Below are positions 3,529-23,496 of a stretch of DNA of 64,000 bases, one piece after another. The stretch comes from a virus. The DNA lies in the IMG/VR virus record IMGVR_UViG_3300047550_006373, positions 1 to 64,000 of that record; one strand, given 5' to 3'. The notes under the pieces are model-generated. The model had not been told where the DNA came from. It ran no database searches and saw only the letters and a program-made list of their open reading frames with translations. A program made the translations under genes and the position numbers. The stretch's first letter is position 1. The number at the start of each line of letters is the position of its first letter.

Positions 3529-3536
3529 TTAATCTT

Positions 3537-6320: not shown

Positions 6321-6333
6321 ATTTTTGTAAAAT

Positions 6334-6362: not shown

Positions 6363-6381
6363 TCTAGTCTAGGTGACGATA

Positions 6382-8004: not shown

Positions 8005-8900
8005 GAAAAGTTTACGTTTTATCCCCAGGAGAGAACTGGATAGTTGACAGATTTGTCAAAGAATGGTATGAAGATAATCTTGATATTTCTACAAAGTCAC
8101 TAGTAGAATCTCAGGTTGTCTGGTTGTTAGCAGACTGGTGCTGGAATCAAGTTCCCATCGACATTCTGAGAAATAGAAAAGTATTAACAACTGTTCATCA
8201 CATAGTACCAGAAAAATTTGGGGAAAAAGAAAGAAAAGACTTTGAGTTAAGAGATGGCATCACAACTGCCTATCACGTGTTTAATCAGTCTACTTCTGAC
8301 TTCATAAGAAGCATTACTGATAAACCAATACACTTGATTCCATACTGGGCTAATCAAAAAATTTGGAGAAAAACTCAAGATAAACTATCCCTTAGAAAAA
8401 AATACAATATTCCAATTGATTCCTATGTAATTGGATCATTTCAAAGAGATACGGAAGGTCATGATCTAGTTAGTCCCAAACTTGAAAAAGGACCAGATCT
8501 TCTCGTAGATTTTATAGAGAAGAAAAGAGAAAAAGAAAGTTCTGTTTTCGTAGTCTTAGCCGGGTGGCGGAGACAGTATGTTATAAACAGACTTAAAGCT
8601 TCTAGCATACCTTACGTTTACTATGAGAGGCCTCCTCAGGAAACAGTTAACGAACTTTATCAGACTCTTGATCTATACCCTGTTTCAGCAAGATGCGAAG
8701 GAGGTCCACAGTCACTGATAGAGTGTGGTCTTTTAGGAGTTCCCGTTATATCAAGAAATATAGGGATATCAAGTCAAGTATTACCTTCTTCTTCGATAAA
8801 TGATGAATTGTCTTTAGCTGTTGAAAGCATACCGAGCGTAGAAGGCTGGGAGTTACCTAGGGGCTATGAAGTCTATAGAAATTTATTGATGAGTATTTAA
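8001..8900 (+). CDS. GT4-like glycosyltransferase
   Basis: A 299-residue GT-B protein. The N-terminal part includes VVWLLADWCWNQVP and TTVHHIVPEKFGEKE, and a histidine-containing strand LIPYWANQKIW. The C-terminal part has IGSFQRDTEG, FVVLAGW, and the donor motif ARCEGGPQSLIECGLLGVPV, where the glutamates sit as in GT4 enzymes. It follows the carbamoyltransferase with a 4-base overlap and ends one base before the start of the three-domain sugar-activation gene, so these three are one expression unit. Which sugar it transfers cannot be read. Confidence 0.78.
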   Translation: MRKVYVLSPGENWIVDRFVKEWYEDNLDISTKSLVESQVVWLLADWCWNQVPIDILRNRKVLTTVHHIVPEKFGEKERKDFELRDGITTAYHVFNQSTSDFIRSITDKPIHLIPYWANQKIWRKTQDKLSLRKKYNIPIDSYVIGSFQRDTEGHDLVSPKLEKGPDLLVDFIEKKREKESSVFVVLAGWRRQYVINRLKASSIPYVYYERPPQETVNELYQTLDLYPVSARCEGGPQSLIECGLLGVPVISRNIGISSQVLPSSSINDELSLAVESIPSVEGWELPRGYEVYRNLLMSI

Positions 8901-10769
8901 ATGAACATTATAGTTCCTCTTTTAGGCTCAGGATCTCGCTTTAAGGAAGCAGACTATCCCTCTTCAAAATCTTTAGTTAAGTACAAAACTAAAGAGATAA
9001 TTTTCTATCTTCTTGACCAACTTGTAGTCAATCAAGACAAAGTCTATGTTATTCATAGAAGTGATTTAGAAAATGAGAGGTTTAGTGAGAAAGTAAAGTC
9101 TCGGTATGGAGAAAGAGTCACTACACATCAAGTTAATTATAACACTTCGGGAGCAGCCCATACTCTCCAAATAGCTTTAAAGTCTTTTGATATTAATCTA
9201 GAAGATCCTTTAGCAGTATGTGACTCTGACACTTTTTATGACAAAGATCACATTAATGAAATAAGAGACGTAGGTAACTGTATTTTTCACTTTGAAGATC
9301 TTGGTAAAGATCCAATATATTCTTATATTAAAACTGATAAGACCGGAAAAGTCTTACGAATAAAAGAAAAGTCCAAGATTTCTAATCTTGCATCAGTGGG
9401 AACTTATTGTTTTGATAGTGGAATAACTGCTCTAAAATATTGTGAGAAAGTACTAAAGAAAGACATAAAGCAGAAGGGTGAGCATTACATCTCTTCAGTT
9501 TTTCAAGAAATGATAGATGACAATGTTACTGTTACGACTAAGCAGACGTCTAATTTCAAGTGTCTAGGAACTCCTGCTCAACTTCAGTCTGCAAAGACGG
9601 ATACGCTTCTTAGAATATGTTTTGATCTTGACAACACTTTAGTTACTGAACCAAGAATAAAAGGTGATTATTCAACAGTAGAACCAATACAGAAAAATAT
9701 AGACTTTCTTAATGACTTAAAGAGAGAGGGACACACTATTATCATTCACACAGCAAGAGGAATGAAGTCGTGTCAAGGTAAAGTAGGCGTACTCTCAGCA
9801 AACATAGGAAAAGTAACTTTCGATACATTAGAAAAGTTTCAAATTCCGTATGACGAAATCTACTTTGGAAAACCGTTTGCAGATGCTTACATTGACGACA
9901 AATCTGTAGACGCATACGGAGATCTAGAAAAACTAACTGGTGTCTACAGAAATCCTGTTATCAATAGAAATCATAACAGGGTCAGTCTAGAAGAAGAAGT
10001 TGTTAGAAAAATTTCAAAAAATAAATCTATTTCTGGAGAACTGTACTGGTATAAGAATTTGCCAAAAGAAGTTTCTCATTTATTTCCGAAGCTGGTATCC
10101 TCGAGAGAAGGTGATGAGACTGAAATTTGTACTCAAAAAATAGAAGGAACAACTCTTTCTAGAATGCTAATAAACGGTTCTGTAAATAGAGAAATAATTC
10201 ATGAACTTTTTAATTCAATTACTTTGATTCACTCTTCTGTATTAGGAGAAATCAATAATTCAAATCCATATGATAACTACGCTAGAAAGACAGAAGAACG
10301 TTTTCAAAAATTTGACTCTTCCCTTTTGCAAGACAAATCAAATGAATCTTTTTATTCCGACATAATAAGATTTCTTCATGATTACGAAGAAAATAATTCT
10401 GCATTAATAAGCAACATACACGGAGACCCAGTTTTTACAAATATTCTCATAGACAAAGACAATAGAATGAAGTTTATCGATATGAGAGGACTTCAAGGAA
10501 AAGTTTTGACAATTACTGGGGATAAAAACTATGATTATGCCAAGATATACCAGTCTTTGCTAGGATACGACAGTATTGTTCATGACTGTCATCTAGACGA
10601 TCAATATCTAGAATTTTTAAGAAAAGAATTCGTCGCTGTTAGCAAGTGTAACGTTGAGATAATAAGAAAATTATCAAGTTCTCTCTTATTTTCCTGTATA
10701 CCTCTTCAGCCAAGAAAATTGTGGTCAAAACTCCTATTCGTAGCAAAGGATAGTTTCTATAACAAATGA
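8901..10769 (+). CDS. Fusion: sugar nucleotidyltransferase + HAD phosphatase + APH-like kinase
   Basis: A 622-residue protein with three enzymes in one chain. Residues 1 to about 230 are an NTP-transferase domain (IIVPLLGSGSRF, then the lysine of SSKSLVKY), which activates a sugar- or alcohol-phosphate with a nucleotide. Residues about 236-345 are a HAD phosphatase like those of capsule loci: D242-L-D244-N-T246, HTARGM, and D332-D333 in YIDDKS. Residues about 370-610 are a kinase of the aminoglycoside/choline kinase fold: H507-G-D509 to N514 for the catalytic loop and D527 (FIDMRG) for magnesium. Kinase, phosphatase and nucleotidyltransferase would make a full activation path, as LicA plus LicC do for choline or HddA, GmhB and HddC for heptose. 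The substrate is unknown. It directly abuts its neighbours. Confidence 0.82.
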   Translation: MNIIVPLLGSGSRFKEADYPSSKSLVKYKTKEIIFYLLDQLVVNQDKVYVIHRSDLENERFSEKVKSRYGERVTTHQVNYNTSGAAHTLQIALKSFDINLEDPLAVCDSDTFYDKDHINEIRDVGNCIFHFEDLGKDPIYSYIKTDKTGKVLRIKEKSKISNLASVGTYCFDSGITALKYCEKVLKKDIKQKGEHYISSVFQEMIDDNVTVTTKQTSNFKCLGTPAQLQSAKTDTLLRICFDLDNTLVTEPRIKGDYSTVEPIQKNIDFLNDLKREGHTIIIHTARGMKSCQGKVGVLSANIGKVTFDTLEKFQIPYDEIYFGKPFADAYIDDKSVDAYGDLEKLTGVYRNPVINRNHNRVSLEEEVVRKISKNKSISGELYWYKNLPKEVSHLFPKLVSSREGDETEICTQKIEGTTLSRMLINGSVNREIIHELFNSITLIHSSVLGEINNSNPYDNYARKTEERFQKFDSSLLQDKSNESFYSDIIRFLHDYEENNSALISNIHGDPVFTNILIDKDNRMKFIDMRGLQGKVLTITGDKNYDYAKIYQSLLGYDSIVHDCHLDDQYLEFLRKEFVAVSKCNVEIIRKLSSSLLFSCIPLQPRKLWSKLLFVAKDSFYNK

Positions 10770-11650
10770 AAAAAACAGTATTTTCAATACTTGCGCATGA
10801 AAATATAGAGACAATAGTCGATCAAGTTCAGAATTTTATAAAATTCTGTCCAAATTCTCTTGTTGTTCTGCATCTTAGTGCAAACTCAAAAATTCTGGAT
10901 CAGAAGAAAAAACTAATTGACATATTGCCGGACGAGTGCTTAACAAATCCTACTTCAATTTTTGTAGATCGACACGATCTTATACAAGGACATATTTCTA
11001 ACTTTAGACATGTAAGAAAAATACTAGGAAGAGAACTCGGATATTTTTGTTTACATGCAAGTAATGACATGATCGTAAAAAGCGGTCTTGAGTCGTATGT
11101 TTTTTCTCATGAATGCGGTGTACACCAGTTAAAAAATTATGAAGAAATGCCCAACTGGACTCCCTACATTAGATCTAAATTCGATCCACAGTTTGTAGAA
11201 ATGTGCAAATACGTGGGAGCAAAAGATACGTTTGGTTCCCAGCCAGAAGGAACTTTCTACAAAGCTGAACTGTTTGAAGAGATGTGCAATATAGTTGAAA
11301 AGTACTTTGATAGAGAAAAAATTTCTTCATACATGACTAAAGACAAAGAAGATACAAATAACACTCTTTATGCAAGAGAAGAACTTTATTTCCCAACCTT
11401 GGTTTCTAGATTAAGCAATGACATAGTCTATCCTTATCTCTATAGTGAAGTAGTGGCTGCACAGAGAAAAATTACGATTCATCTAATTAATTCAATCAGG
11501 GACTGTTCTATAAGCTTGAGCGACTGTCTAGAGACGCACAGATTTAAAGGAATTCAAATTTACGATAAAGAAAATTTGTATGCAGTAAAAAGAATTCCAA
11601 GACGTATAGACGATGACTTAAGACAATTTATAAGAAGTCTAGAGTTGTAA
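10766..11650 (+). CDS. Possible Core-2/I-branching-type glycosyltransferase
   Basis: A 294-residue protein. The start TVFSILAHENIETIVDQV, then LVVLHLSANSK and YFCLHASNDMIV, resembles the GT14 (Core-2/I-branching N-acetylglucosaminyltransferase) family found in capsule and phage loci, where a haemolysin-like A-H-x-N opening and an S-x-N/D-D strand are common. The likeness is modest and I would accept plain 'glycan-island protein' as the safe name. It overlaps the fusion gene by 4 bases at its start. A promoter begins within its last codons, so it ends a transcription block. Confidence 0.55.
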   Translation: MKKTVFSILAHENIETIVDQVQNFIKFCPNSLVVLHLSANSKILDQKKKLIDILPDECLTNPTSIFVDRHDLIQGHISNFRHVRKILGRELGYFCLHASNDMIVKSGLESYVFSHECGVHQLKNYEEMPNWTPYIRSKFDPQFVEMCKYVGAKDTFGSQPEGTFYKAELFEEMCNIVEKYFDREKISSYMTKDKEDTNNTLYAREELYFPTLVSRLSNDIVYPYLYSEVVAAQRKITIHLINSIRDCSISLSDCLETHRFKGIQIYDKENLYAVKRIPRRIDDDLRQFIRSLEL

Positions 11651-11673
11651 GTCTTTTAATATTTGCTTATAAT
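11645..11673 (+). promoter_or_regulatory. Sigma70-like promoter
   Basis: TTGTAA at 11645-11650, a 17-base spacer, and TATAAT at 11668-11673, preceded by TGCT. The gap between genes is only 41 bases, and GAGGA at 11683-11687 sits just ahead of the ATG at 11692. The -35 overlaps the stop codon of the upstream gene. The TGC-T-TATAAT core matches the motif seen at 6354 and 44436. Confidence 0.6.
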
Positions 11674-11691
11674 CTTTTCTTTGAGGAATAC

Positions 11692-12552
11692 ATGATAAAT
11701 GACTACCAAGTAATTATTGCAACTCTTGTTTCCAATATAGAGACTACTGGGTATTCTATGGTAACTCCGCAAAGTTGCAAGTCTTGGTCTTCTATAGATT
11801 TTATAGACAAAGTACTTATTTTAGACGGTCAATCTATTGACGGAACTGAATCTCTTATAAAAGAGGCAGCACCCAGATGTGAAGTAGTAAAAAGCAGCGT
11901 AGTTTGGCCAGCAAATGTATGGACATGGGAAATACTCCAAGTTATAGAAAATGAGATAATAGATTTTGTCAACAAACTACCGCATCAGAATAAAATTTTA
12001 ATTACCGTGTCTTCAGACAACATCTTCACAGAAAAATCAATAGAAGATCTGAGAAATGCTTGCAAAGTTCTGATAGAATCAGAAGACAAAGACTTTATTA
12101 ACTTAACGTTCAGAAAAGCAATAACTTCAAAATACATTTCCAACATCTATCCAGTCATGAACGGATGGCACATTTCTTCCATAAGCAAATTTAGAGAAGG
12201 AATTGAGTGGAAAAAGGTAAAAATGGGAGAAGTGGGCATAGAAACAAACAGGCCCATTAGTCAACTACCATATAGTTTCAACTATTGCCCAATCAGCTAT
12301 GATATGTTTTGCTTTACTAGAAAGAACTTAGTAGAAAAGCTTGAAAGGCATCCCGACTTTCTAGGAAAGAAAAAACCAGATATTGATCATTATATTGAAA
12401 GTTACTGGCTTAATAAGTTAAACTCTATGGGAATAAACAGAATTGAATTGTATCAGCACCCAGAAGAGGCTAGAAAATTCATAGAATTAATTGATTATAA
12501 TCATTTTGGTTATGATCTTTTTGGTCATATAACGAGTGTGAGAATCAAATGA
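11692..12552 (+). CDS. GT2-like glycosyltransferase
   Basis: A 286-residue protein with a GT-A-like N-terminus: VIIATLVSNIETTGYSM, then VLILDGQSIDGTESLI, which is the GT2 strand followed by the D-G-x-S-x-D-G-T turn. A strand ILITVSSDNIFTEKS takes the place of the DxD site, with only one aspartate visible, so the metal site is unusual. The rest (FCFTRKNLVEKL, PDIDHYIESYW) resembles the C-terminal part of phage GT2 proteins. It heads the block of amino-sugar genes from its own promoter, with GAGGA at 11683-11687. It overlaps the next gene by 4 bases. Confidence 0.68.
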   Translation: MINDYQVIIATLVSNIETTGYSMVTPQSCKSWSSIDFIDKVLILDGQSIDGTESLIKEAAPRCEVVKSSVVWPANVWTWEILQVIENEIIDFVNKLPHQNKILITVSSDNIFTEKSIEDLRNACKVLIESEDKDFINLTFRKAITSKYISNIYPVMNGWHISSISKFREGIEWKKVKMGEVGIETNRPISQLPYSFNYCPISYDMFCFTRKNLVEKLERHPDFLGKKKPDIDHYIESYWLNKLNSMGINRIELYQHPEEARKFIELIDYNHFGYDLFGHITSVRIK

Positions 12553-13646
12553 AGATACCCTTTAGCGATTTATACAGTTTCAACAAGCCTTTCGAAGACG
12601 AATTTCTAACAGACGTTAGAGAGATTTTTAGAGACAGTAGCTTCGTAGGCGGGAAATTCATAGATAGATTTGAAAAAATTTTTTCTGAAACTACGAAAAA
12701 CAAATACTGCGTAGCGACTTCTTCGGGAACTGATTCTCTATCTGTAATACTAAGATCCCTTGACATACAGCCAGAAAAAGGGGTGATATATTATCCTGCT
12801 AACACTTTCATTGGCTCAATATTAGGTGCTCTTCAACTTGGATATAAGTGCAAGCCCTATGACGTAAGTTTAAAAACTTTTAATGCGGACGAAGAAACTT
12901 TTTCTACTATTGGAGACGATGCCTCTGTAGTAATTGCTGTCCATCTCTATGGCTATGGATTAAAACACATAGAAAAGCTAAAAGAATTATGTGAAAAGAA
13001 AAATGCAATATTGTTAGAGGATTGCTCTCAAGCTCATTTTCAAGAAATAAAAGACAAGCAAGTTTCAAACTTTGGAAAAGCTTCTTTTTATTCAATGTAT
13101 CCAGGAAAAAACTTTGGAGCAGCTGGCCAGGCTGGGGCGGTTTGCACTGATGACGAAGAGTTAGTTGCAAGAATGAAGGCAGTAAGAAATTACGGGGCTC
13201 CAAAAAAGTATGAGCATACGTTCAAAGGCTTCAACTACAGAATGGATTCGATACAGGCTGCTTTTCTATGCAGAAAATTCCCAGTAATGGGTGAAGAAAT
13301 TGAAAAAAGAAGAGACATTTCTAGAAGATTACTTTCAGAAATATCTAATCCTCAAATTTCTGTCATGCAAATCACACCTGAGGAAAGTGTTTGGCATCTA
13401 TTCCCAGTCTACTCTGAAAAAAGAGAAGAATTAATAAATCATCTTAATGCCAAAGATATTGAAACTGTAATACACTACCCTAAGAACTGTCATCATTTTA
13501 GCTGTTGGTCAAATCAGATATTGGCTGGGTCGACTAGCAATGCTGACACTTTGTCGTCAGGTATTTTAAGTCTTCCATGTCACGGAGCAATGAGCAAAGA
13601 TCAAGTAAATTATCTAATAGAGGCAATAAATGAATTTGGTAAATAA
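12549..13646 (+). CDS. DegT/DnrJ/EryC1/StrS-family sugar aminotransferase
   Basis: A 365-residue PLP enzyme that puts an amino group on a keto-sugar nucleotide. The fold-type I markers are all there: SSGTDSL for the phosphate of PLP (about residues 58-64), D158 in ILLEDCSQAH for the pyridine nitrogen, and K187 in MYPGKNFG as the Schiff-base lysine. The C-terminal GFNYRMDSIQAAFL and VIHYPKNCHH are typical of the family. The YPGKN-G-A form of the lysine loop resembles 3-aminotransferases such as QdtB/FdtB more than the WbpE form. The next gene, a sugar oxidoreductase that could make its keto substrate, overlaps it by 17 bases. Confidence 0.9.
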   Translation: MKIPFSDLYSFNKPFEDEFLTDVREIFRDSSFVGGKFIDRFEKIFSETTKNKYCVATSSGTDSLSVILRSLDIQPEKGVIYYPANTFIGSILGALQLGYKCKPYDVSLKTFNADEETFSTIGDDASVVIAVHLYGYGLKHIEKLKELCEKKNAILLEDCSQAHFQEIKDKQVSNFGKASFYSMYPGKNFGAAGQAGAVCTDDEELVARMKAVRNYGAPKKYEHTFKGFNYRMDSIQAAFLCRKFPVMGEEIEKRRDISRRLLSEISNPQISVMQITPEESVWHLFPVYSEKREELINHLNAKDIETVIHYPKNCHHFSCWSNQILAGSTSNADTLSSGILSLPCHGAMSKDQVNYLIEAINEFGK

Positions 13647-14463
13647 CCCAGAAAAAACTTTGCTTATTGGACACGGTTACTGGGGTAAGATTATTGAGAA
13701 GAATCTTAAAAACAGACCTGTTATTTTTGATATTTCCAAAAATTCAAAAGAGAGCCTTGATGATCTAGTCAAAGAGTGCAGTCATGTAATTATTTCAACA
13801 CCTGCTTCGACTCATTTTGACATAGTTGACAAAGCTCTTGATAATAACTGTAAAATTTTTTGTGAAAAACCGCTAACTGTGACTCTCGAAGAAGCTATGC
13901 ACCTCTACGAGAAAGCTGACAGTCTGCAAAAATCCTTCTATGTAGACTGGATCTTTCTGTGCAACCCAGTTATTAGATCTATCAAAGAACTAATAAGGAC
14001 GGGTGACGTTGGAGATCTAAAATACGCAACTATGAACAGATTAAATCTTGGACCCGCGAGAACGGATGTTAATGCAAGGTTTGATCTATCTTCACACGAT
14101 CTTTCAATACTTGTTCATTTTTTAGGAAGCAATCTTAGCGTTACTCACTACGATCTTTATCAAAAAGACGAAAAAATGGCAGGAACGAGCTGCTCTCATG
14201 TTAAGTGGGAAAATGGAGAAGGAACAATCAATACAAGCTGGAACTATCCCGTGAAAGACCGAACCTGCATTTTTACATTTGAAAAATGTACTTTTCACTG
14301 GGATGACTCAAAGTCAATAGCTGTCATGAATGGGACACCATTAATTTTTAACAAAAATGAAACTCCACTGCAGATTTCTTTAAGAGATTTTTTTGAAGAC
14401 TCTTATGATTTTGAAGAAAATAAAAGAGTTACATTAGAAGTTACAAAACTACTGCGTGATTGA
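13630..14463 (+). CDS. Gfo/Idh/MocA-family sugar oxidoreductase
   Basis: A 277-residue NAD(P)-dependent oxidoreductase. Residues 12-19 (LIGHGYWG) are the dinucleotide-binding turn, VIISTPASTHFD is the substrate-side strand, and E79-K80-P81 is the family's signature EKP. The stretch ARFDLSSHDLSIL holds the catalytic-region histidine. It is shorter than the usual 310-380 residues, mostly in the C-terminal beta-sheet domain. With the overlapping aminotransferase it matches the GnnA/GnnB or WbpB/WbpE pairs: oxidation at C3 of UDP-GlcNAc or its uronic acid, then transamination. The exact substrate is inference. Confidence 0.85.
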   Translation: MNLVNNPEKTLLIGHGYWGKIIEKNLKNRPVIFDISKNSKESLDDLVKECSHVIISTPASTHFDIVDKALDNNCKIFCEKPLTVTLEEAMHLYEKADSLQKSFYVDWIFLCNPVIRSIKELIRTGDVGDLKYATMNRLNLGPARTDVNARFDLSSHDLSILVHFLGSNLSVTHYDLYQKDEKMAGTSCSHVKWENGEGTINTSWNYPVKDRTCIFTFEKCTFHWDDSKSIAVMNGTPLIFNKNETPLQISLRDFFEDSYDFEENKRVTLEVTKLLRD

Positions 14464-14464
14464 A

Positions 14465-15577
14465 ATGAATGTATTTATTTTTCCAACTGACGATAGATTA
14501 GGACAGCTTTCTCTTATAGACCATTATAGCAGACTTGGTCATAACGTTTTCTTGCCTGCCAAAGGCACTCTTTCTTTGGACTGGTCAAAAATTGCAACAT
14601 GGCCTGCTCTTCTTTGCAATGACTTCAGCGGAAGAAGAAATTTAGAAGTCAAGAATTTTGATGTTAATGATCCATCCGTTTTTGGTGAAGATCTTTTTCT
14701 CACGCTAGAGCAGATACCAATAACCAACCACGGGCTTAAGTGCGAGATAATAGATCTCGAAAAAGAAAATATTCAAATAGACATATTTCATACTTTGCGA
14801 GGCGGTGAATCTTTTCTTAGAGAGTACCTAAACATTTCAAAAAAGTTTTTTCCCAAAGCAAAATGGGTGTCATCGACTCTAAGTGCACACGACCACAATC
14901 CTGCAGGTCAATCTCCAGAAAACTTGGCAGGATTTATACCCGCTCCTTACGAAAACATGTCAAAAAAGATGAGACTGTTTTCAACTGATGCGGCACTCAA
15001 GGTTTTTGGAATTTCACGTCAAGATCCTGAGATACAAAGATGCAAAGAATTTGCATCATTCAATCACAACTTTCACATAAGACAACCAGAAGACTTTCAG
15101 ATTTATACCAAGATTAATGAGCTTCTAAGAAAAAACAATACTCCTGAAGTAAAAAACTACGGAGGAAATATAAGAAGAATGGGAGCAGACTTAAGATACA
15201 ATAGCGGCGGTCCGACTGGAAATTTTGAAACTTTATCTCCCGTAAATGCTTTGAAAAAGATATCTTGCCTTAGCGGAGTACTTCATTTAAAAAATACTGA
15301 CTGGGGTGGTGGAGTTTTTTATGATTCTTTGCAAACTGACACTCCCATTATTACGACAAGAAGATATGTTAAGAATTCTAATTCTTCAAAGTATCTGATT
15401 GACGGTGTTAACTGTATTCATATTGACACTCCCGAAGAAGCATTCAAAGCAATAGTAAAAATTACAGAAGACGACAATTTCTCAAGAAGCCTTAGAGAAG
15501 GAATGAAATCAGTCAGAGAAGCAATTTTCAAAAATTACTGGGACGACTGGGAGAGATTTTTAAACAGCCTAGTATAA
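14465..15577 (+). CDS. Putative GT-B glycosyltransferase
   Basis: A 370-residue protein. The N-terminus NVFIFPTDDRLGQLSLIDHY with LGHNVFLPAKG looks like a GT-B acceptor domain. The C-terminus (LSGVLHLKNTDWGGGVFYD, then TPIITTRRYV and LIDGVNCIHIDTPEEAF) looks like a donor domain in which the usual E-x7-E run is replaced by GGGVFYDSLQ. The likeness is in layout more than in exact motifs. I chose the ATG at 14465, two bases after the upstream stop; an in-frame GTG at 14456 would overlap by eight bases. It stands between the amino-sugar oxidoreductase and the acyltransferase. Confidence 0.6.
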   Translation: MNVFIFPTDDRLGQLSLIDHYSRLGHNVFLPAKGTLSLDWSKIATWPALLCNDFSGRRNLEVKNFDVNDPSVFGEDLFLTLEQIPITNHGLKCEIIDLEKENIQIDIFHTLRGGESFLREYLNISKKFFPKAKWVSSTLSAHDHNPAGQSPENLAGFIPAPYENMSKKMRLFSTDAALKVFGISRQDPEIQRCKEFASFNHNFHIRQPEDFQIYTKINELLRKNNTPEVKNYGGNIRRMGADLRYNSGGPTGNFETLSPVNALKKISCLSGVLHLKNTDWGGGVFYDSLQTDTPIITTRRYVKNSNSSKYLIDGVNCIHIDTPEEAFKAIVKITEDDNFSRSLREGMKSVREAIFKNYWDDWERFLNSLV

Positions 15578-15588
15578 TTCTTCTTGAA

Positions 15589-16236
15589 ATGAGCATTCAC
15601 CCTACAGCAATCATTGAAGACTCTGTTATTTTAGGAGAAAACGTAACAATTGGACCGTATTCTGTAATAACAGGTAAGGTCATTATTGGCAGCGGAACCA
15701 CGATATATTCTCACTGTACCATAGGAGGACTAGGAGAATATCCTTCTAAGAGAATGGATGAGATACAGGATAATGTGGGAGTAGTTATAGGAGAAAATTG
15801 TATCATAAGAGAGTCTGTTAACATCAATGCAGCAACAATAGCCAATCAAAATACTGTTATTGGTAATAACTGCTATATTATGACCAAATCACATGTAGGA
15901 CACGATGTTATACTTGAAGAAGGAGTCGTAATATGCAGCTGTGCTGTTATAGGCGGATACTCAAAGATAGGAACAAAGACTTACGTGGGTCTGAACTCTT
16001 CGATACACCAACGATCTGATGTTGGAGGCTATTGCATAATTGGAGCACAATCCTTCTTTAAAGGTGAAAGCCCTGACGGAATAACCTGGGCGGGTACACC
16101 TGCAACTCCAAAAAAGGTCAATTTTTTTAATCTAAATAAGAATCTAAAAGATGGATCTCAAAAATCGGGAATAGTAGATAAAGCTGAGCTTTATATTAAA
16201 AATTTCTCTAAATCTCAAAAGAAAGAAAAAGAATGA
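15589..16236 (+). CDS. LpxA-like left-handed beta-helix acyltransferase
   Basis: A 215-residue acyltransferase. From residue 3 on it is built of hexapeptide repeats (IHPTAIIEDSVILGENVTIG and further [LIV]-G-x4 turns) that form a left-handed beta-helix. H102 and H105 in SHVGHD match the position of the catalytic histidines of LpxA, and the order IGE-N-CIIRESVNIN also follows LpxA. The C-terminal helix region is short and lysine-rich. LpxA acylates UDP-GlcNAc, or UDP-GlcNAc3N where GnnA and GnnB make it. Here the aminotransferase and oxidoreductase lie just upstream, so N-acylation of an amino-sugar nucleotide is the likely role; acetyl or longer chain cannot be told. Confidence 0.82.
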   Translation: MSIHPTAIIEDSVILGENVTIGPYSVITGKVIIGSGTTIYSHCTIGGLGEYPSKRMDEIQDNVGVVIGENCIIRESVNINAATIANQNTVIGNNCYIMTKSHVGHDVILEEGVVICSCAVIGGYSKIGTKTYVGLNSSIHQRSDVGGYCIIGAQSFFKGESPDGITWAGTPATPKKVNFFNLNKNLKDGSQKSGIVDKAELYIKNFSKSQKKEKE

Positions 16237-17171
16237 TTTCAAGAAGTTCTATTGCTGTTATCGGACAAGGTTTCGTGGGTGGTTCCATTACCACAGTTTT
16301 TTCAGAACACGGTTTTGAAGTTTTTGTTCATGATAAAACTGGTAAAGTATCCCCTGGAGGTAAGCAACCTGAAATCGCTGGTGGTACACATGCAAGTAAT
16401 GTCAAAGAATTCGTAACAGCTTGCGAAAAAGTTGTGGACTTTTCAAAAGTATACTTCGTGTGTCTTCCAACTCCCATGTATGAAGACGGATCTGCAGACC
16501 TCAGTATAGTCGAGGGTGTGCTTGACGAGATAGCATCTGTTCCAGGTGACAGGATTGCTGTCGTGAAGTCAACTATTCCTCCCGGCTCTACTGAAGGCTG
16601 GAACAAGAAGTACGAATCTACAGGGCTGAGAGTGATCTTCAATCCAGAGTTCCTCACAGAAGCAAACGCGCTCGACGACATGAGAAACCAGAACAGGATC
16701 ATCATCGGTGGACCAAGACCTTGGATCAATTCAGTGAAGCAGATATTTCAAACTGCCTTCCCCAAGGTTCCGATTATCAAGACTTCCTCGACGACTGCAG
16801 AAATGGTCAAGTACCTCACTAACAACTTCCTCACGGTCAAAGTTGCATTCGCGAATGAGATGGCTCAGATTTGTGAGGCCCTAGACGCTTCAGGTCTCAA
16901 CGTGGACTACGACAAGGTTGTCGAATATGCCAAGTACGACCGCCGACTCGGAGACTCTCATTGGGGAGTACCAGGACCTGACGGTGCCCGAGGGTATGGA
17001 GGTCACTGCTTCCCCAAGGACATCAATGCAATGATCGATGTCGCTAAGAAGAACGGTGTAGATCCCAAAGTTCTCACCTCCTCCTGGGAGAAGAACCTTG
17101 AGGTGAGACAACCTGAACACAGAGATTGGGAGAAGATGTCAGGCAGGGCAGTGTCAAAACGCAGTACTTGA
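16233..17171 (+). CDS. UDP-glucose/UDP-GlcNAc 6-dehydrogenase-like, short form
   Basis: A 312-residue nucleotide-sugar dehydrogenase. It has the NAD-binding turn VIGQGFVGG, FVCLPTPM, KSTIPPGST, FNPEFLTEA, and the catalytic C259 in GYGGHCFPKD. This enzyme oxidises C6 of a UDP-hexose to the uronic acid, with two NAD+. Typical members have about 400 or more residues; here the chain stops soon after the central helix, so the C-terminal UDP-binding domain is missing or reduced. Base composition changes inside the gene: the first 70-90 codons are AT-rich like the upstream genes, and the rest prefers AAG, GAG, CTC and GAC. It overlaps the acyltransferase by 4 bases. Confidence 0.85.
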   Translation: MISRSSIAVIGQGFVGGSITTVFSEHGFEVFVHDKTGKVSPGGKQPEIAGGTHASNVKEFVTACEKVVDFSKVYFVCLPTPMYEDGSADLSIVEGVLDEIASVPGDRIAVVKSTIPPGSTEGWNKKYESTGLRVIFNPEFLTEANALDDMRNQNRIIIGGPRPWINSVKQIFQTAFPKVPIIKTSSTTAEMVKYLTNNFLTVKVAFANEMAQICEALDASGLNVDYDKVVEYAKYDRRLGDSHWGVPGPDGARGYGGHCFPKDINAMIDVAKKNGVDPKVLTSSWEKNLEVRQPEHRDWEKMSGRAVSKRST

Positions 17172-17206: not shown

Positions 17207-18019
17207 ATGTCAGAAAATCAATTTCAAGTACTCCCAACAGGCAAACCTCACGTATCTTTTTCTGAGGTGAAGACCTGGAAGGATTGCTCCTATAGGCACC
17301 ACCTCACCCACGTGAAGAAGATCGATTTCTTCAAACCCTCACCTGTACTTGAGTTCGGCACAGCGGTGCACGCTTCATGCGAGAAGTACCTGCTCACTCG
17401 TGAGATGGATGTGAAGTTGTGCCACGATGCCCTCGATGAGGCATGGGCCAAACATGGTGGTCAGGAAGAATTCACAGAAAAGGCATTAAAGGTTGCCAAG
17501 ACTGAGTCTGAAGCAATTCTCTCCGAGGTACCTGCATTCCTGGACAGGGAGTTTCCCGAGTGGTCTGTTGTGGATGCGGAGCACGCCCTGTATGAATCTG
17601 TGGAGGGTCATCCCCACGCATTCAAGGGCTTCATCGACGGCGTTATCAAGTGTAAAGGTAAGCGAGGAGAAGACCTCTATTGGATCATCGACTGGAAGAC
17701 GTCTGCTAACGGCTGGAGACGAGAGAAACGTTCGGATGAGATGGTGAAGGCCCAATTGGCCCTCTATAAGAACTACTGGCACCAGAAGAATCCACAGGTT
17801 CCCTTCAAAGACATCAGATGTGCATTCGCCATCCTCAAGAAGTCGGCGAAGCCTGGGCAGCACTGTGAGCTCTTTTCCGTCTCTATGGGTGACGTCCCTA
17901 TTAAAAAGTCCTTAAAAGTAGTGAGCAACATGATTACCTCTGTTAAGAGAGGAATTTCTCTTAAAAATCGTGATTCTTGTACGTACTGTGAATACAAAGG
18001 AACAGAGTACTGCACTTAA
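17207..18019 (+). CDS. Cas4/RecB-like PD-(D/E)XK nuclease with Fe-S cysteines
   Basis: A 270-residue DNA nuclease of the RecB/Cas4 group. The active-site set is complete: H55 (GTAVHASCEKY), D144 (GFIDGVI), D162-W-K164 (IIDWKTS) and the QxxxY motif Q183-Y187. Four cysteines are placed as for a 4Fe-4S cluster: C27 near the N-terminus and C258, C261 and C269 at the very end (C-x2-C-x7-C). Such enzymes trim or resect DNA ends; phages use them in recombination, host DNA breakdown or packaging. It sits oddly inside the glycan island and shares with the dehydrogenase gene a higher-GC codon use until about base 17890. No Shine-Dalgarno is visible. Confidence 0.85.
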   Translation: MSENQFQVLPTGKPHVSFSEVKTWKDCSYRHHLTHVKKIDFFKPSPVLEFGTAVHASCEKYLLTREMDVKLCHDALDEAWAKHGGQEEFTEKALKVAKTESEAILSEVPAFLDREFPEWSVVDAEHALYESVEGHPHAFKGFIDGVIKCKGKRGEDLYWIIDWKTSANGWRREKRSDEMVKAQLALYKNYWHQKNPQVPFKDIRCAFAILKKSAKPGQHCELFSVSMGDVPIKKSLKVVSNMITSVKRGISLKNRDSCTYCEYKGTEYCT

Positions 18020-18064
18020 CTAAACTTTTGTTACAACTTTTTCTTTTTGCGTAATATAGGGACA

Positions 18065-19318
18065 ATGCAGAATCAAAAGAAGACCATTTTATTTTTGTCA
18101 GATCACCCTTTATCAACTTCAGGGGTGGGAACTCAGGCAAGGTGGCTAATAAGCGGATTGATCAATACGGGAAAATACAGCTTCAAGTGTTTTGGCGGAG
18201 CGATTAGACACGACAACTACGAAACCGTTGTAGTAAACCCTGACTTTATCATTAAGCCGACAAACGGGTTTGGGGACAAATCACTTTTAAGAAAAACGCT
18301 TGCTCAAGTTAGACCTGATGCTCTCTTTTTATTCACAGACCCAAGATTTTTCATCTGGACGTGGGAGATGGCTGACGAAATACAACAAATTTGCCCCATA
18401 GTGTATTGGCACCTTTGGGACAATCCCCCGTGGCCAGCCTTTAATTCCCCGCTATATGAATCCACCGATCTAATCAATTGCATTAATTATCCAACATATG
18501 AGATGGTAAAAGAAAGATTTCCAGAGAAGACAAACTATATACCGCATGCAGTACCTGAGGATCTTTATTCACCGCTTCCAAAAGAAGATTCTCAAAAGTT
18601 TAAAAATGCACTTCTTGGCCCGAGCAAGTCTGATCACTTCACATGCTTGTACGTCTCTAGAAATGCAAGAAGAAAGATGATAAGCGACATTCTTGTTTCT
18701 TGGCGAGATTTTATTGAAGAATTGCAACAAAAGTATGGGCACAAGAAAGCTACGATGGTTCTTCACACAGACCCTCTAGATCAAGAAGGTACAAATTTGC
18801 ATCAGGTCATAGACCTGCTAGGAATAAGAGAAAATATAGTCTTTTCCAAAGATAGAATAGGCTTTAATGAAATGAGATCTCTTTACAACATGTGCGACAC
18901 TATTGTAAATAGAAGCTGCAATGAAGGATTTGGATTGCCCACTCTTGAAATGATGATGTGCGGTAAGCCAATCATTGCATTAAAAACGGGCGGCCTTACA
19001 CGACAAGTCGAGGATCCTGACACAGGTGAGCAGTTTGGAATCGGAATGGACCCAGAAGTCAGGACCATGGTGGGAAATCACATGGTCCCCTACATCTATG
19101 AAGACTTTGTATCTCATAAAACGGTTACCAATGCATTTATGAAGATGTATGAATTAGGACCAGAAGAAAGAGAAGCTTTAGGTAACAGAGCGATGGAACG
19201 CGCCAAGAAGGAATATAATCTTAAAAATGTAGTTTCAGAATGGGACAGAACTCTTACAGAAACGATTGATAAGTGGAATTCTAAGATAGAGCCGAGATGG
19301 AAGGTATCTGAGATATGA
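18065..19318 (+). CDS. GT4 glycosyltransferase
   Basis: A 417-residue GT-B enzyme, the clearest GT4 member in the window. The acceptor domain opens with LFLSDHPLSTSGVGTQARWL. The donor domain has CLYVSRNARRK, TMVLHTDP, GFNEMRSLYNMCD, and the motif NEGFGLPTLEMMMCGKPIIA, where the two glutamates lie seven residues apart as GT4 requires. I chose the ATG at 18065, which has AGGGA just ahead; the in-frame TTG at 18047 would lie in an A/T-rich promoter-like stretch. The nuclease gene ends 45 bases upstream, and the stop overlaps the next glycosyltransferase by 4 bases (ATGA). Confidence 0.85.
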   Translation: MQNQKKTILFLSDHPLSTSGVGTQARWLISGLINTGKYSFKCFGGAIRHDNYETVVVNPDFIIKPTNGFGDKSLLRKTLAQVRPDALFLFTDPRFFIWTWEMADEIQQICPIVYWHLWDNPPWPAFNSPLYESTDLINCINYPTYEMVKERFPEKTNYIPHAVPEDLYSPLPKEDSQKFKNALLGPSKSDHFTCLYVSRNARRKMISDILVSWRDFIEELQQKYGHKKATMVLHTDPLDQEGTNLHQVIDLLGIRENIVFSKDRIGFNEMRSLYNMCDTIVNRSCNEGFGLPTLEMMMCGKPIIALKTGGLTRQVEDPDTGEQFGIGMDPEVRTMVGNHMVPYIYEDFVSHKTVTNAFMKMYELGPEEREALGNRAMERAKKEYNLKNVVSEWDRTLTETIDKWNSKIEPRWKVSEI

Positions 19319-20508
19319 ATCTTTTTGAAATATCTGGGATGAAGAAGAAGAAGATTCTTGTCAGAGGACCCGTATTGACTCAATCTGGCTATGGTGTTCA
19401 TGCTCGTCAAATAGTAAAGTGGTTATTTGACAGAAAAGAACTAGACGTAGATGTGCAGGCTCTTCCTTGGGGAGATACTCCTTGGTTAATTGATAAAAAC
19501 CTATATGACGGTTTTATTGGTAGAATTATGGAAAAAACTGTAGACCCAGCTGGGAGGGTCTATGATGCGACCATACAGATACAGCTCCCCAATGAATGGG
19601 ATACTTCTTTCTCAAAGACAAACATTGGAGTCACAGCTTCTGTAGAGACTGACAAATGTAATCCTGAATGGATCAATGACTGCAACAAGATGAGTCTCGT
19701 TATTGTCCCTTCGCAGCACGCTAAGAATAGTTTAACATCAACAGGAACGGTAACAACTCGACTTTGTGTAGTTCCAGAAGCATTCTCCGAAGCTATCACT
19801 AGAAATGAGAAATCTAAAGTAGATGACGTTTGTTTCTCTACGAATTTCAACTTCTTAATTTTCGGCCAGATAACAGGGAACAACCCAGAAAATGAGAGAA
19901 AGAATATTTTCTATACTGTTAAGTGGCTCTGTGAAGTCTTTGAAAAGGACAAAGACGTAGGAATTATCATAAAAACAAATTCAGGTAGAAACACTTGCAT
20001 TGATAGAAAGCTTATTCAACAAACTTTTGAAAATCTTGTCAAGGAAGTTAGAAAAGGACCTTTCCCAAAGATTCATCTGTTACATGGAGATCTTTCTGAT
20101 GAAGAAGTGGCTTCTCTATATAAGCATCGTAGTGTCAAGTCCTTAATCTCACTTACAAAAGGAGAAGGATACGGTCTTCCTATATTAGAAGCTGCGGCGT
20201 CGGCGCTTCCTGTTATTGCAACTAACTGGTCAGGTCACAAAGATTTTCTGTCTCATGGGAAATTTATTGAAATTGACTACAGACTACTAGAAATACATGG
20301 TTCGCGTGTTGACAACAAGATCTTCATGAAGGGTAGCAAATGGGCTAATCCAATAGAGGAAGATTTTAAAAGAAAAGTTGCTAAGTTTAGATCTGGTTCT
20401 CTGATTCCAAAAGAGTGGGCTATCAGTCTGTCTCAAAAAATTCAAGAGAAATACTCTATAGAAGCTGTAAAATCACAGTATGACGAGGTAACAAAAGACT
20501 TAATATGA
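19315..20508 (+). CDS. GT4 glycosyltransferase
   Basis: A 397-residue GT-B enzyme. Near the N-terminus KILVRGPVLTQSGYGVHARQ is the acceptor-side loop, and GVTASVETDKCNPEWI, the strand that normally precedes the active-site groove. The donor domain shows ICFG-like FLIFGQITGNNPENERKN, IHLLHGDLSDEEVASLY, and LTKGEGYGLPILEAAASALP with the E-x7-E pair. It is coupled to the preceding GT4 by an ATGA overlap; the two may act in sequence on one acceptor. A second in-frame ATG lies at 19339. This is the last sugar gene before the virion-gene block. Confidence 0.83.
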   Translation: MNLFEISGMKKKKILVRGPVLTQSGYGVHARQIVKWLFDRKELDVDVQALPWGDTPWLIDKNLYDGFIGRIMEKTVDPAGRVYDATIQIQLPNEWDTSFSKTNIGVTASVETDKCNPEWINDCNKMSLVIVPSQHAKNSLTSTGTVTTRLCVVPEAFSEAITRNEKSKVDDVCFSTNFNFLIFGQITGNNPENERKNIFYTVKWLCEVFEKDKDVGIIIKTNSGRNTCIDRKLIQQTFENLVKEVRKGPFPKIHLLHGDLSDEEVASLYKHRSVKSLISLTKGEGYGLPILEAAASALPVIATNWSGHKDFLSHGKFIEIDYRLLEIHGSRVDNKIFMKGSKWANPIEEDFKRKVAKFRSGSLIPKEWAISLSQKIQEKYSIEAVKSQYDEVTKDLI

Positions 20509-20819
20509 TTATTGCAATATTTTCATGTTTTTCGATTTCTCTTCTCAGTGCGCTTGTGATGAGCGTAAAGAAGAACATTGAATTCATGGAAACTTTTGAT
20601 GATATTCAAGAATCCTTACAGCGTTCTCTTGAAATTCTAGAAGAACAAAAGGAAAAGATAAGTCAGAAATCAAAACTCGAAGTTTTTTCTGATGAACCAG
20701 TGGTAAGAAATCTAATAAGAGACATAGTTGAATCAAAAAATGCAGTCATTAGTGTCGCAAAATTACTTGATGATTCTTTAGTCGAAGAAATAAATGAAAG
20801 CAAAGAAGCAAAAGAATGA
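20505..20819 (+). CDS. Small membrane protein with coiled-coil tail
   Basis: A 104-residue protein that I do not recognise by family. Residues 1-19 (IIAIFSCFSISLLSALVMSV) form one hydrophobic helix that should anchor it in the inner membrane or serve as an uncleaved signal. The rest is strongly charged, rich in Glu, Lys and Ser, and likely helical (residues 22-55 have a heptad look). It overlaps both the glycosyltransferase before it and the sigma factor after it by 4 bases, so it is made together with late regulators. No function can be given. Confidence 0.7.
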   Translation: MIIAIFSCFSISLLSALVMSVKKNIEFMETFDDIQESLQRSLEILEEQKEKISQKSKLEVFSDEPVVRNLIRDIVESKNAVISVAKLLDDSLVEEINESKEAKE

Positions 20820-21604
20820 AAACAAACATTCCCAAAAAGAGAAGGGAGAGAAAGAATAAGAAAATCTCCGAAGAAATTGGATCTGATCCATCTCAAAAGA
20901 AAGAATCCAAAGAGGAGAAGGATAAGCTGAAGCTTTATTTCAATTCTGACACTCAGGATGCAATAGTTGCATATCAGTCTGAGTCTTCCAAAAAAGAAAA
21001 AGACAAGCTTTATGTAGAGAAAATTCTTCCTGCTTTTAAAAAACTTGTAGAGAATTTAATAAACATTCACAAGTTTACTGGGATGCATGACACATACGAA
21101 GAGCTAAAGAACGACTGTGTGAATTTTTTATTTGAGACAATTCATAAGTTTGATGCCTCGCGTGGAACAAATGCTTTTTCTTATTTCAATGTTGTAGCAA
21201 AAAACTGGCTGATCATAAAGACAAAACAAAAGTCGCAAAGGACGAAGAAGAGTGTAAGTCTGGATGATCCGTTGTCACTCACGACTCATGAATCTTTAAT
21301 AATAGAAGAACACAACACTGTAGAAGTAAACGACCTCTTCTTTGAGACAAATAGCTCAGGAGAAAGCACCGTAGGCCTCCTATATGAAATAAGATCCAGG
21401 GTAAAGACTGAAAATGAGCTTACTTGTATCAATGCAATAATTACAATTTTTGAAAATATAGATGAGATAGATTTGCTTAACAAGAGCGCAGTCCTTTTAT
21501 ACATGAGAGAGTTGTCAGGATTGTCTCCAAAACAATTAACAACTGCAATGCAATCAATAAAGAGAAGATACAAGAAGTCTAGATTTGACTTTAGAGATGC
21601 ATAA
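20816..21604 (+). CDS. 55: T4 gp55-like late sigma factor
   Basis: A 262-residue sigma70-family protein that should redirect host RNA polymerase to phage late promoters. A lysine-rich, disordered start (residues 1-45) is followed by a region-2-like helix set: VAYQSESSKKEKDKLY, LPAFKKLVENLINIHKF, then CVNFLFETIHKFDASRGTN and AFSYFNVVAKNWLI, which is the region 2.1-2.4 pattern of gp55 (the KFD-x-RG-N-x-FSYF run is characteristic). The C-terminal 100 residues resemble the gp55 tail only loosely. In T4-like phages gp55 works with gp33 and gp45 for late transcription. Its position directly upstream of the baseplate genes fits that role. Confidence 0.8.
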   Translation: MKTNIPKKRRERKNKKISEEIGSDPSQKKESKEEKDKLKLYFNSDTQDAIVAYQSESSKKEKDKLYVEKILPAFKKLVENLINIHKFTGMHDTYEELKNDCVNFLFETIHKFDASRGTNAFSYFNVVAKNWLIIKTKQKSQRTKKSVSLDDPLSLTTHESLIIEEHNTVEVNDLFFETNSSGESTVGLLYEIRSRVKTENELTCINAIITIFENIDEIDLLNKSAVLLYMRELSGLSPKQLTTAMQSIKRRYKKSRFDFRDA

Positions 21605-21621
21605 GTCTATTGGTGACTGTC

Positions 21622-21975: not shown

Positions 21976-21977
21976 TT

Positions 21978-23441: not shown

Positions 23442-23449
23442 ATTTTCTG

Positions 23450-23457: not shown

Positions 23458-23496
23458 CTTCATACGTCAAAGCGGACTGATTGATAGTTAAGTCCT

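What the first reader, a model, noticed from the sequence alone, without database searches (positions are those of the whole stretch)
12549..17171. Probable pathway to an acylated 3-amino sugar nucleotide
Aminotransferase, Gfo/Idh/MocA oxidoreductase, LpxA-like acyltransferase and a UDP-sugar dehydrogenase lie in a row. The first three repeat the GnnA-GnnB-LpxA set (UDP-GlcNAc3N, then N-acylation); all four together recall WbpA/B/E/D (UDP-diacetamido-uronic acid). Either route in a phage is unusual. An LpxA-like enzyme in a phage would be notable because it could alter lipid A.
Basis: partly seen in the sequence, partly recalled or inferred. Interest (0 to 1): 0.72.

Follow-up and report, generated by a model that had tools for sequence, protein, structure and literature searches.

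The report
Phage module for acylated 3-amino sugar
A phage known only from environmental sequence carries three nearby genes that probably turn a common cell-wall sugar nucleotide into a version with an acylated amino group at carbon 3, more likely for decorating a polysaccharide than for changing lipid A, while the fourth gene that seemed to belong to the set is part of the phage's standing backbone.

Summary
The four ORFs are real and at the stated coordinates, but they are not one four-gene pathway. An unmentioned 373-aa ORF lies between the oxidoreductase and the LpxA-like gene. The dehydrogenase (16233-17171) is a backbone gene: it recurs in 43 related phage loci; none of the 36 with at least 6 kb upstream shows the oxidoreductase within the fetched ~7 kb. 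It lacks the UDP-binding C-terminal domain. In the closest relative of the cassette (L051, same lineage) it lies about 8 kb from the aminotransferase/oxidoreductase pair. The WbpA/B/E/D reading is therefore not supported. The other three genes do look like a module: the families occur together in 5 of 11 phage loci and 25 of 69 bacterial loci examined, and six bacterial loci have acyltransferase-oxidoreductase fusions. Best explanation: 3-oxidation, 3-amination and 3-N-acylation (probably acetylation) of UDP-GlcNAc for a surface or virion glycan. The oxidoreductase's fold is nearest GnnA, but tree and motifs place it outside the lpxA-linked GnnA group; the aminotransferase groups with QdtB; the acyltransferase lacks LpxA's C-terminal domain, and three SAR11 genomes hold a similar short protein besides a true LpxA. 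A lipid A role is unlikely. Substrate, acyl donor and purpose are inferred, not shown.

The parts
12549..13646 (+). DegT/DnrJ/EryC1/StrS sugar aminotransferase, probably acting at C3; probable PLP lysine K187
   Evidence: PF01041 E 9.7e-76; best solved relatives 5u1z (236 bits; named WlaRG from memory), 7n63 (229) and QdtB 3frk (222.5), against 174 for 7b0d and 122 for WbpE; K187 aligns with the residue at which chains 5u1z (K) and 5u21 (A) differ; tree groups it with these three at 98/97*
13630..14463 (+). Gfo/Idh/MocA oxidoreductase, probable nucleotide-sugar 3-dehydrogenase; EKP lysine K80 and H156
   Evidence: PF01408 E 6.4e-15; best NCBIfam NF040723 UDP-GlcNAc 3-dehydrogenase 65.4 bits, far below cut-off 450; K80 and H156 invariant in 24 of 24 aligned rows (that they are catalytic is recalled); model mean pLDDT 93.6, nearest fold GnnA 7bvj Z 30.8
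14456..15577 (+).
   Evidence: no Pfam, NCBIfam or PHROGs match; relatives in L024, L039 and L051; profile comparison with GT4-type proteins only suggestive, P 0.0053 at probability 6.8
15589..16236 (+). LpxA-like left-handed beta-helix acyltransferase, short form; probable sugar N-acyltransferase (N-acetyl more likely than long-chain)
   Evidence: TIGR01852 130.6 bits under cut-off 231; phmmer to LpxA chains E 4.4e-23 and to 8e62 E 2e-14, 8e62 being Pcryo_0615, an N-acetyltransferase of a diacetamido-dideoxy sugar (title); no PF13720; H105, H140 and N178 align with residues conserved in LpxA
16233..17171 (+). Truncated UDP-glucose/GDP-mannose dehydrogenase: phage backbone gene, probably NOT part of the module
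   Evidence: 43 related loci at 49-83% identity; 20 of 20 scanned have PF03721 and PF00984, 0 of 20 PF03720; C259, K193, N197, D263 invariant in 20 of 20 (that they are catalytic is recalled)
2..12552 (+). Rest of the sugar island: glycosyltransferases, methyltransferase, carbamoyltransferase, a nucleotidyltransferase-HAD fusion, two ORFs without family match
   Evidence: Pfam, NCBIfam and PHROGs scans; GC 33-39%
17207..25854 (+). Conserved backbone after the dehydrogenase: PD-(D/E)XK nuclease, two glycosyltransferases, late sigma-factor-like protein, ORFs without family, baseplate wedge proteins
   Evidence: synteny; Pfam and PHROGs matches

Best explanation
The cassette in a T4-like phage's sugar island encodes a three-enzyme module. 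The Gfo/Idh/MocA enzyme oxidises C3 of UDP-GlcNAc to a ketone with NAD+, the DegT-family enzyme puts an amino group there with PLP, and the short LpxA-like enzyme acylates that amine, most likely with an acetyl group from acetyl-CoA. The product (UDP-2,3-diacetamido-2,3-dideoxyglucose or a close relative) is a donor for the glycosyltransferases around it, which build or modify a glycan on the infected host's surface or on the virion. Shown: gene content, kept catalytic residues, co-occurrence of the three families, separateness of the dehydrogenase. Inferred: substrate, cofactor, acyl donor, product and purpose.
For: Gfo, DegT and a hexapeptide acyltransferase within 4 kb in 5 of 11 phage loci and 25 of 69 bacterial loci; the loci were chosen for their Gfo relative, so these are not population frequencies. 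Of the 25, L086 and L190 are one genome stretch fetched twice, and in L183 the acyltransferase is a true LpxA. A dehydrogenase of the UGD family is in the fetched locus in 0 of those 5 and 5 of those 25. One ORF holds both acyltransferase and Gfo in L162, L163, L167, L172, L174 and L191 (five of them also visible). Gfo model of high confidence with GnnA as nearest fold by Foldseek (ranks 1-4 and 6) and VIA-align (Z 30.8 and 30.5, next 28.8). Aminotransferase closest to solved QdtB-type chains. Acyltransferase resembles LpxA and, more weakly, the solved N-acetyltransferase Pcryo_0615 (8e62). The acyltransferase type differs between relatives of the pair: LpxA-like in the window, L053, L055, L058; another hexapeptide type in L051 and L052, as expected if N-acylation in general is what is needed. 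No match to a ketoisomerase (PF05523), 4,6-dehydratase (PF16363) or 2-epimerase (PF02350) in the record.
Against: No substrate was shown. The Gfo lies outside the lpxA-linked GnnA and the UGD-linked rows, on long branches, in a phage-only group that also holds Gfo proteins without an aminotransferase within 4 kb (L054, L056, L060, L061, L062). Its motifs (NRLNLGPARTD...DLSSHDLSI, SWNYPVK) differ from those of lpxA-linked GnnA (R-APFKxR...DLMxHDxD, ASR). Its NF040723 score is far below the cut-off. The aminotransferase groups with enzymes of dTDP-sugar routes (substrates recalled), not with the lpxA-linked or WbpE rows, and several rows of that tree have an odd letter make-up. The record is a fragment, so missing partners are weak evidence. 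The acyltransferase's structure model was unusable. Neither 'GlcNAc' nor 'acetyl' is tested by any search.
Confidence: 0.5

Rival explanations
1. Four-gene uronic acid route as in WbpA/B/E/D: the dehydrogenase first makes UDP-GlcNAcA, then 3-oxidation, amination and acetylation give UDP-GlcNAc3NAcA.
For: All four enzyme classes lie side by side here; the dehydrogenase keeps its conserved Cys, Lys, Asn and Asp; 5 of 25 bacterial trio loci have a UGD-family gene in the locus; the Gfo shares the SWxxPxK and HDxS motifs with the UGD-linked L171; L051's phage too has both, about 8 kb apart.
Against: The dehydrogenase occurs in 43 related phage loci; none of the 36 with 6 kb or more upstream shows the Gfo, although a pair further than the fetched ~7 kb, as in L051, would be missed. 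It lacks the UDP-binding domain in 20 of 20. The aminotransferase is not in the WbpE group. 0 of 5 phage trio loci have a UGD-family gene within the locus, and 1 of 5 of their records has one (the others may be fragments).
Confidence: 0.12
2. Lipid A route as GnnA-GnnB-LpxA: the phage makes UDP-GlcNAc3N and attaches a hydroxyacyl chain, changing host lipid A.
For: Nearest fold of the Gfo is GnnA; the acyltransferase is LpxA-like, with residues conserved in LpxA kept.
Against: No C-terminal domain PF13720, present in 2 of 2 true LpxA scanned; 130.6 bits against a cut-off of 231; SAR11 genomes G006, G007 and G008 have a true LpxA (313-330 bits) and a separate short LpxA-like protein (108-118 bits); Gfo outside the lpxA-linked GnnA group; aminotransferase apart from the one lpxA-linked row.
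Confidence: 0.06
3. A 3-acylamino-3,6-dideoxyhexose route (Qui3NAc or Fuc3NAc type) on dTDP, with the Gfo in another role.
For: The aminotransferase groups with QdtB, 5u1z and 7n63 at 98/97*.
Against: No FdtA/QdtA-type ketoisomerase or 4,6-dehydratase match in the record, which may be a fragment; such routes need no Gfo 3-dehydrogenase (recalled); Gfo and DegT families lie together in other phages and bacteria.
Confidence: 0.15
4. The genes are stuffer DNA or independently acquired sugar genes that do not act together.
For: The island is variable: of 43 related backbone loci none has the Gfo or the LpxA-like gene by BLAST and 3 have an aminotransferase match; phage Gfo proteins also occur without an aminotransferase within 4 kb.
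Against: Kept conserved residues, overlapping reading frames, the repeated trio in different gene orders, and acyltransferase-Gfo fusions.
Confidence: 0.12

Closest known systems
WbpB/WbpE/WbpD (WlbA/WlbC/WlbB) route to UDP-GlcNAc3NAcA (PMC10622841, passages read)
   Same: 3-dehydrogenase, 3-aminotransferase and N-acetyltransferase steps; some Gfo motifs shared with the UGD-linked L171
   Different: The WbpA step is not tied to the module; aminotransferase outside the WbpE group; acyltransferase LpxA-like
GnnA/GnnB and LpxA (lipid A with 2,3-diaminoglucose; PMC7663294, passages read)
   Same: Gfo fold nearest GnnA; acyltransferase LpxA-like; no uronic acid step needed
   Different: Gfo motifs and group, aminotransferase group, missing LpxA C-terminal domain
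QdtB and related sugar 3-aminotransferases (3frk, 5u1z, 7n63)
   Same: Closest solved relatives and tree neighbours of the aminotransferase
   Different: No QdtA-type ketoisomerase found in the record; partner is a Gfo oxidoreductase
Pcryo_0615 (8e62), LpxA-like N-acetyltransferase of a diacetamido sugar
   Same: Short LpxA-like helix protein acting on an amino sugar (title only)
   Different: Only E 2e-14 by sequence; LpxA chains score better
SAR11 Gfo / LpxA-like / DegT loci
   Same: The same three families near each other in L071 and L073; the short LpxA-like proteins of SAR11 and phages form one group with the window's (90/88, not starred)
   Different: Other order, with a ~692-aa protein between; 12 further SAR11 loci have the LpxA-like gene but no DegT within 4 kb of the Gfo
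Host recognition cluster of pelagimyophages (PMC7029224, passages read)
   Same: Variable, glycosyltransferase-rich island in T4-like phages; UDP-glucose 6-dehydrogenase is named among sugar genes of these phages
   Different: 'aminotransferase' has 0 occurrences in the main text
Megavirinae sugar clusters (PMC10117803, passages read)
   Same: A virus-encoded nucleotide-sugar route with aminotransferase and acetyltransferase, giving a diacetamido sugar (bacillosamine) in virion fibrils
   Different: Giant viruses of amoebae; a 4,6-dehydratase route with the amino group at another carbon (carbon recalled); no Gfo 3-dehydrogenase in the passages seen

Membership tests
GnnA/GnnB/LpxA lipid A route | 3-dehydrogenase with GnnA-like fold | tested here: met
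   Foldseek ranks 1-4 and 6, VIA Z 30.8 against 28.8 for the next other entry; a general Gfo fold, so weak on substrate
GnnA/GnnB/LpxA lipid A route | Gfo in the group, and with the motifs, of lpxA-linked GnnA | tested here: not met
   the group is L181, L182, L183, L188, of which L183 matches GnnA 7bvj at 254.6 bits
GnnA/GnnB/LpxA lipid A route | Aminotransferase with GnnB | tested here: inconclusive
   window with QdtB-type rows at 98/97*, lpxA-linked L183 elsewhere; but only one GnnB-type row, identified by context, and odd letter make-up in several rows
GnnA/GnnB/LpxA lipid A route | Acyltransferase with LpxA C-terminal domain PF13720 | tested here: not met
   absent in the window protein and 3 other short ones, present in 2 of 2 true LpxA scanned
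GnnA/GnnB/LpxA lipid A route | Hydroxyacyl-ACP as donor | not testable with these tools
   needs assay
WbpA/B/E/D uronic acid route | UDP-GlcNAc 6-dehydrogenase with UDP-binding domain PF03720 | tested here: not met
   0 of 20, window included
WbpA/B/E/D uronic acid route | 6-dehydrogenase travelling with the trio | tested here: not met
   0 of 36 backbone loci show the Gfo within ~7 kb; about 8 kb apart in L051's record
WbpA/B/E/D uronic acid route | Aminotransferase in the WbpE group | tested here: not met
WbpA/B/E/D uronic acid route | Hexapeptide N-acetyltransferase | tested here: inconclusive
   hexapeptide protein present, LpxA-like (the WlbB-type chain 3mqg only E 2.4e-4); donor unknown
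QdtA/B/C or FdtA/B/C route | QdtB-like 3-aminotransferase | tested here: met
QdtA/B/C or FdtA/B/C route | 3,4-ketoisomerase and 4,6-dehydratase | tested here: inconclusive
   PF05523 and PF16363 not found in the 64,948-base record, which may be a fragment
Gfo-DegT-hexapeptide 3-acylamino sugar module (as defined by co-occurrence here) | The three genes within 4 kb with conserved residues kept | tested here: met

The most novel reading that the evidence does not exclude
Large T4-like phages carry an exchangeable cassette, of a type also found in SAR11 and other bacteria, that makes an N-acylated 3-amino sugar nucleotide without a uronic acid step. With it they rewrite the host's surface glycan during infection or coat their own virions. 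The acyl transfer is done by a class of short LpxA-like enzymes distinct from lipid A LpxA.
Probability: 0.35. Interest if true: 0.6.

Novelty: new variant of a known kind. Interest (0 to 1): 0.4.

Why it matters
T4-like phages are known to carry glycosyltransferases and some sugar genes in variable islands (PMC7029224, passages). A complete 3-amino sugar module would mean that some also bring an unusual sugar of their own, which could explain surface conversion or virion glycosylation, as giant viruses do with bacillosamine (PMC10117803, passages). The short LpxA-like proteins are easily misread as lipid A enzymes; separating them avoids false claims of phage lipid A metabolism. The truncated dehydrogenase, conserved across the lineage, is a separate puzzle.

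Tried and rejected
Treating the dehydrogenase as the first step of the pathway: rejected. The control has a limit: the 43 loci hold about 7 kb on each side, so a pair lying further off, as in L051, would not be seen.

LpxA-like hits in the phage collection as precedents: of 7 records I inspected 2. H1 lies in an lpxD-fabZ-lpxA block beside yaeT, so probably bacterial sequence filed as phage; H6 has no annotation.

Structure of the LpxA-like protein: the model (mean pLDDT 79.5) matched nothing by Foldseek at E 0.001 and superposed on LpxA chains at about 11-12 A rmsd despite Z up to 16.3, probably a helix of the wrong hand. I drew no conclusion about its fold from it and use only the title of entry 8e62.

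Identity of the 373-aa ORF: profile comparison with glycosyltransferases gave P 0.0053 and probability 6.8; left open.

Tree of the acyltransferase: 7 of 29 inner branches starred, the window row has a very long end branch (3.75); weak support only. Left out of it: L006.

Gfo tree: of 80 loci tried, 74 gave an ORF; the six fusions (L162, L163, L167, L172, L174, L191) gave none there. I dropped 14 of the 74 (fragments, a long composite ORF, near-duplicates or distant rows: L064, L066, L072, L074, L075, L080-L083, L085, L087, L088, L090, L091). L059, one of the 12 loci, was left out as a near copy of L057. Several rows in both trees are flagged for odd letter make-up.

Paper searches for a phage-encoded 3-amino sugar route: (1 paper; 6; 2; 1; 320 held the terms, 10 listed, unrelated) listed none; nothing beyond this open-licence library was searched. 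PMC9529941 (passages) reports lpxA/D among potential viral genes, so LpxA-type genes in viral contigs have been named before. PMC8040287 was seen only in a search listing with the start of its abstract.

Full report
What is there. The window is part of a 64,948-base virus record with a late sigma-factor-like protein (phrog_234, E 6.6e-6) and baseplate wedge proteins, which suggests a T4-like phage. Upstream of about 16.2 kb lies an island of glycosyltransferases and sugar genes with GC 33-39%. The reported stretch holds five ORFs, not four: aminotransferase 12549-13646, Gfo/Idh/MocA oxidoreductase 13630-14463, an ORF of 373 aa without family match 14456-15577, an LpxA-like protein 15589-16236 and a nucleotide-sugar dehydrogenase 16233-17171. 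No DNA match was found in 50,697 phage records, and no relative of the oxidoreductase at E 1e-5 by tblastn; the aminotransferase has matches in 65 records and the dehydrogenase in 47, all under 60% identity.

The dehydrogenase is probably not part of the set. A scan of viral contigs with it found 44 loci, 43 of them close (49-83% identity by blastp; several are near-identical contigs). In these 43, relatives of the window's next genes were found as follows: PD-(D/E)XK nuclease in 34 (in 28 within about 1.1 kb after the dehydrogenase), the two glycosyltransferases in 32 and 28, the sigma-like gene in 24 (some loci end before these genes). The oxidoreductase and the LpxA-like gene were found in 0 of 43, the aminotransferase in 3, by blastp. 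With profiles, of the 36 loci with at least 6 kb upstream, 0 match the oxidoreductase, 1 (L028) weakly the LpxA-like protein (33 bits), and 6 some aminotransferase (L017, L028 weak, L029 partial, L031, L034, L043). All 20 dehydrogenases scanned have the NAD-binding and central domains and none PF03720; C259, K193, N197 and D263 are invariant. GC rises from 36.9% to 47.4% at the border but falls again further on. In the nearest relative of the cassette, L051, the aminotransferase is 62% and the oxidoreductase 54% identical; its record carries a sigma-like gene 62% identical to the window's and its dehydrogenase at 45871-46755, about 8 kb after the oxidoreductase (positions). So adjacency in the window seems to reflect where the island ends. 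A pair 8 kb off would have been missed in the 43 loci; the argument is that the dehydrogenase keeps its place next to the nuclease whatever lies before it.

The other three genes look like a module. Around relatives of the oxidoreductase (11 of the 12 loci; L059 left out), profile searches found an aminotransferase within 4 kb in 6 of 11 phage loci, and both an aminotransferase and a hexapeptide acyltransferase in 5 (L051, L052, L053, L055, L058; L052 is the contig of L002). In bacterial loci the counts are 33 and 25 of 69, with 19 more having an acyltransferase but no aminotransferase near. The loci were chosen for their oxidoreductase. L086 and L190 are the same stretch; L183 among the 25, and L181, L182, L188 among the 19, count through a true LpxA. 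Six loci (L162, L163, L167, L172, L174, L191) have one ORF holding both acyltransferase and oxidoreductase. A UGD-family gene is in the fetched locus in 0 of the 5 phage trios and 5 of the 25 bacterial ones (L155, L161, L166, L168, L171); of the five phage records searched whole, 1 has it (L051's; the others may be fragments).

Oxidoreductase. The model is of high confidence (mean pLDDT 93.6). Its nearest solved folds are GnnA of Acidithiobacillus ferrooxidans: Foldseek ranks 1-4 and 6, VIA-align Z 30.8 and 30.5 at 2.2-2.3 A over 265-266 residues, the next entry 28.8; WlbA comes at 26.6. By sequence alone the best chains are weak, 3c1a at 1.2e-8 and GnnA 7bvj at 1.6e-7. In the tree of 61 rows it sits with L051 and L052 (98/81*) in a group of phage proteins (95/85*), outside the four lpxA-linked rows (98/87* in the drawn tree) and the UGD-linked L171. 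Its motifs resemble those of SAR11 and bacterial trio proteins (RxNLGPxRxD, DLxxHDLSI, SWxxPxK), several of them also L171's, and not those of the lpxA-linked ones. So the chemistry may be that of GnnA, but it is not in the lipid A GnnA group.

Aminotransferase. Best solved relatives are 5u1z (236 bits; WlaRG by recall), 7n63 (229) and QdtB 3frk (222.5); 7b0d has 174 and WbpE 122. In the tree of 48 rows window, L051 and L052 group with those three at 98/97*, while the lpxA-linked L183 groups with the WbpE rows (97/94*). The phage branches are long, and 5u1z, 7n63 and L052 are among rows of odd letter make-up, so this grouping could be an artefact. That QdtB and WlaRG work on dTDP-3-keto-6-deoxy sugars is recalled. 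K187 aligns with the lysine that is alanine in 5u21.

Acyltransferase. By sequence it is nearest LpxA (E 4.4e-23); 8e62 follows at 2e-14, which the title names Pcryo_0615, an N-acetyltransferase for a diacetamido-dideoxy sugar. It scores 130.6 bits against LpxA's cut-off of 231 and lacks PF13720, which 2 of 2 true LpxA scanned have. Residues conserved in LpxA are kept (H105, H140, N178; their roles are recalled). SAR11 genomes G006, G007 and G008 carry a true LpxA (313-330 bits) and a separate short LpxA-like protein (108-118 bits); in G001 and G010 no such short one appeared, and G011 showed only the short one (genomes may be incomplete). The short genes lie near the oxidoreductase. In L051 and L052 the acyltransferase is of another type, best matched by the NeuD/PglB/VioB acetyltransferase model below its cut-off. 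The simplest reading is an N-acetyltransferase; a longer acyl chain is not excluded.

Mechanism. Most likely: UDP-GlcNAc to the 3-keto, 3-amino and 3-N-acyl forms, then transfer by the island's glycosyltransferases. This is inference from families. Published routes of this chemistry are WbpB/E/D on UDP-GlcNAcA (PMC10622841, passages) and GnnA/GnnB on UDP-GlcNAc (PMC7663294, passages). The record has no match to PF05523, PF16363 or PF02350. Purpose: T4-like pelagimyophages have a variable, glycosyltransferase-rich island whose authors suggest change of the host O-chain to avoid coinfection (PMC7029224, passages). The same could hold here; virion glycosylation is as open.

Novelty. The paper searches listed no phage-encoded 3-amino sugar route. 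Two neighbours in print: lpxA/D named among potential viral genes (PMC9529941, passages) and a bacillosamine route in giant viruses (PMC10117803, passages). I rate it a new variant of a known kind: bacterial 3-acylamino sugar chemistry in a phage island, with a short LpxA-like acyltransferase.

Noticed in passing
16233-17171: Nucleotide-sugar dehydrogenase without the UDP-binding C-terminal domain, with conserved residues kept across a phage lineage (20 of 20 scanned). How it works without that domain is unknown.
   Followed up: partly
8901-10769: One ORF of 622 aa joining a sugar-phosphate nucleotidyltransferase, an EcbF-BcbF-type HAD phosphatase part and a C-terminal part matching PHROGs of unknown function, perhaps a kinase.
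   Followed up: no
6373-8004: NodU/NolO-type carbamoyltransferase (phrog_1601 E 5.6e-115) in the same island; 0 of the 43 related backbone loci have one in the fetched stretch.
   Followed up: no
18047-20508: Two glycosyltransferases kept between the nuclease and the sigma-like gene, found in 32 and 28 of 43 related loci, outside the variable island; their target is unknown.
   Followed up: partly
16233: GC step: 36.9% in the LpxA-like gene, 47.4% and 48.3% in the next two genes, then back to 31-41%.
   Followed up: partly
L070, L072, L078, L080, L083, L084, L085, L087, L088: SAR11 contigs with the oxidoreductase facing a 692-693-aa protein followed by the short LpxA-like gene, in a repeated arrangement.
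   Followed up: partly
L162, L163, L167, L172, L174, L191: Single ORFs combining a hexapeptide acyltransferase and a Gfo oxidoreductase in bacterial genomes.
   Followed up: partly
L198: A record filed as Acinetobacter phage MD-2021a carries yaeT, lpxD, fabZ, lpxA and recA, so that contig looks like bacterial chromosome.
   Followed up: no
57780-58588: A protein with a weak QueC-like match beside tRNA-Met and tRNA-Leu genes on the minus strand.
   Followed up: no
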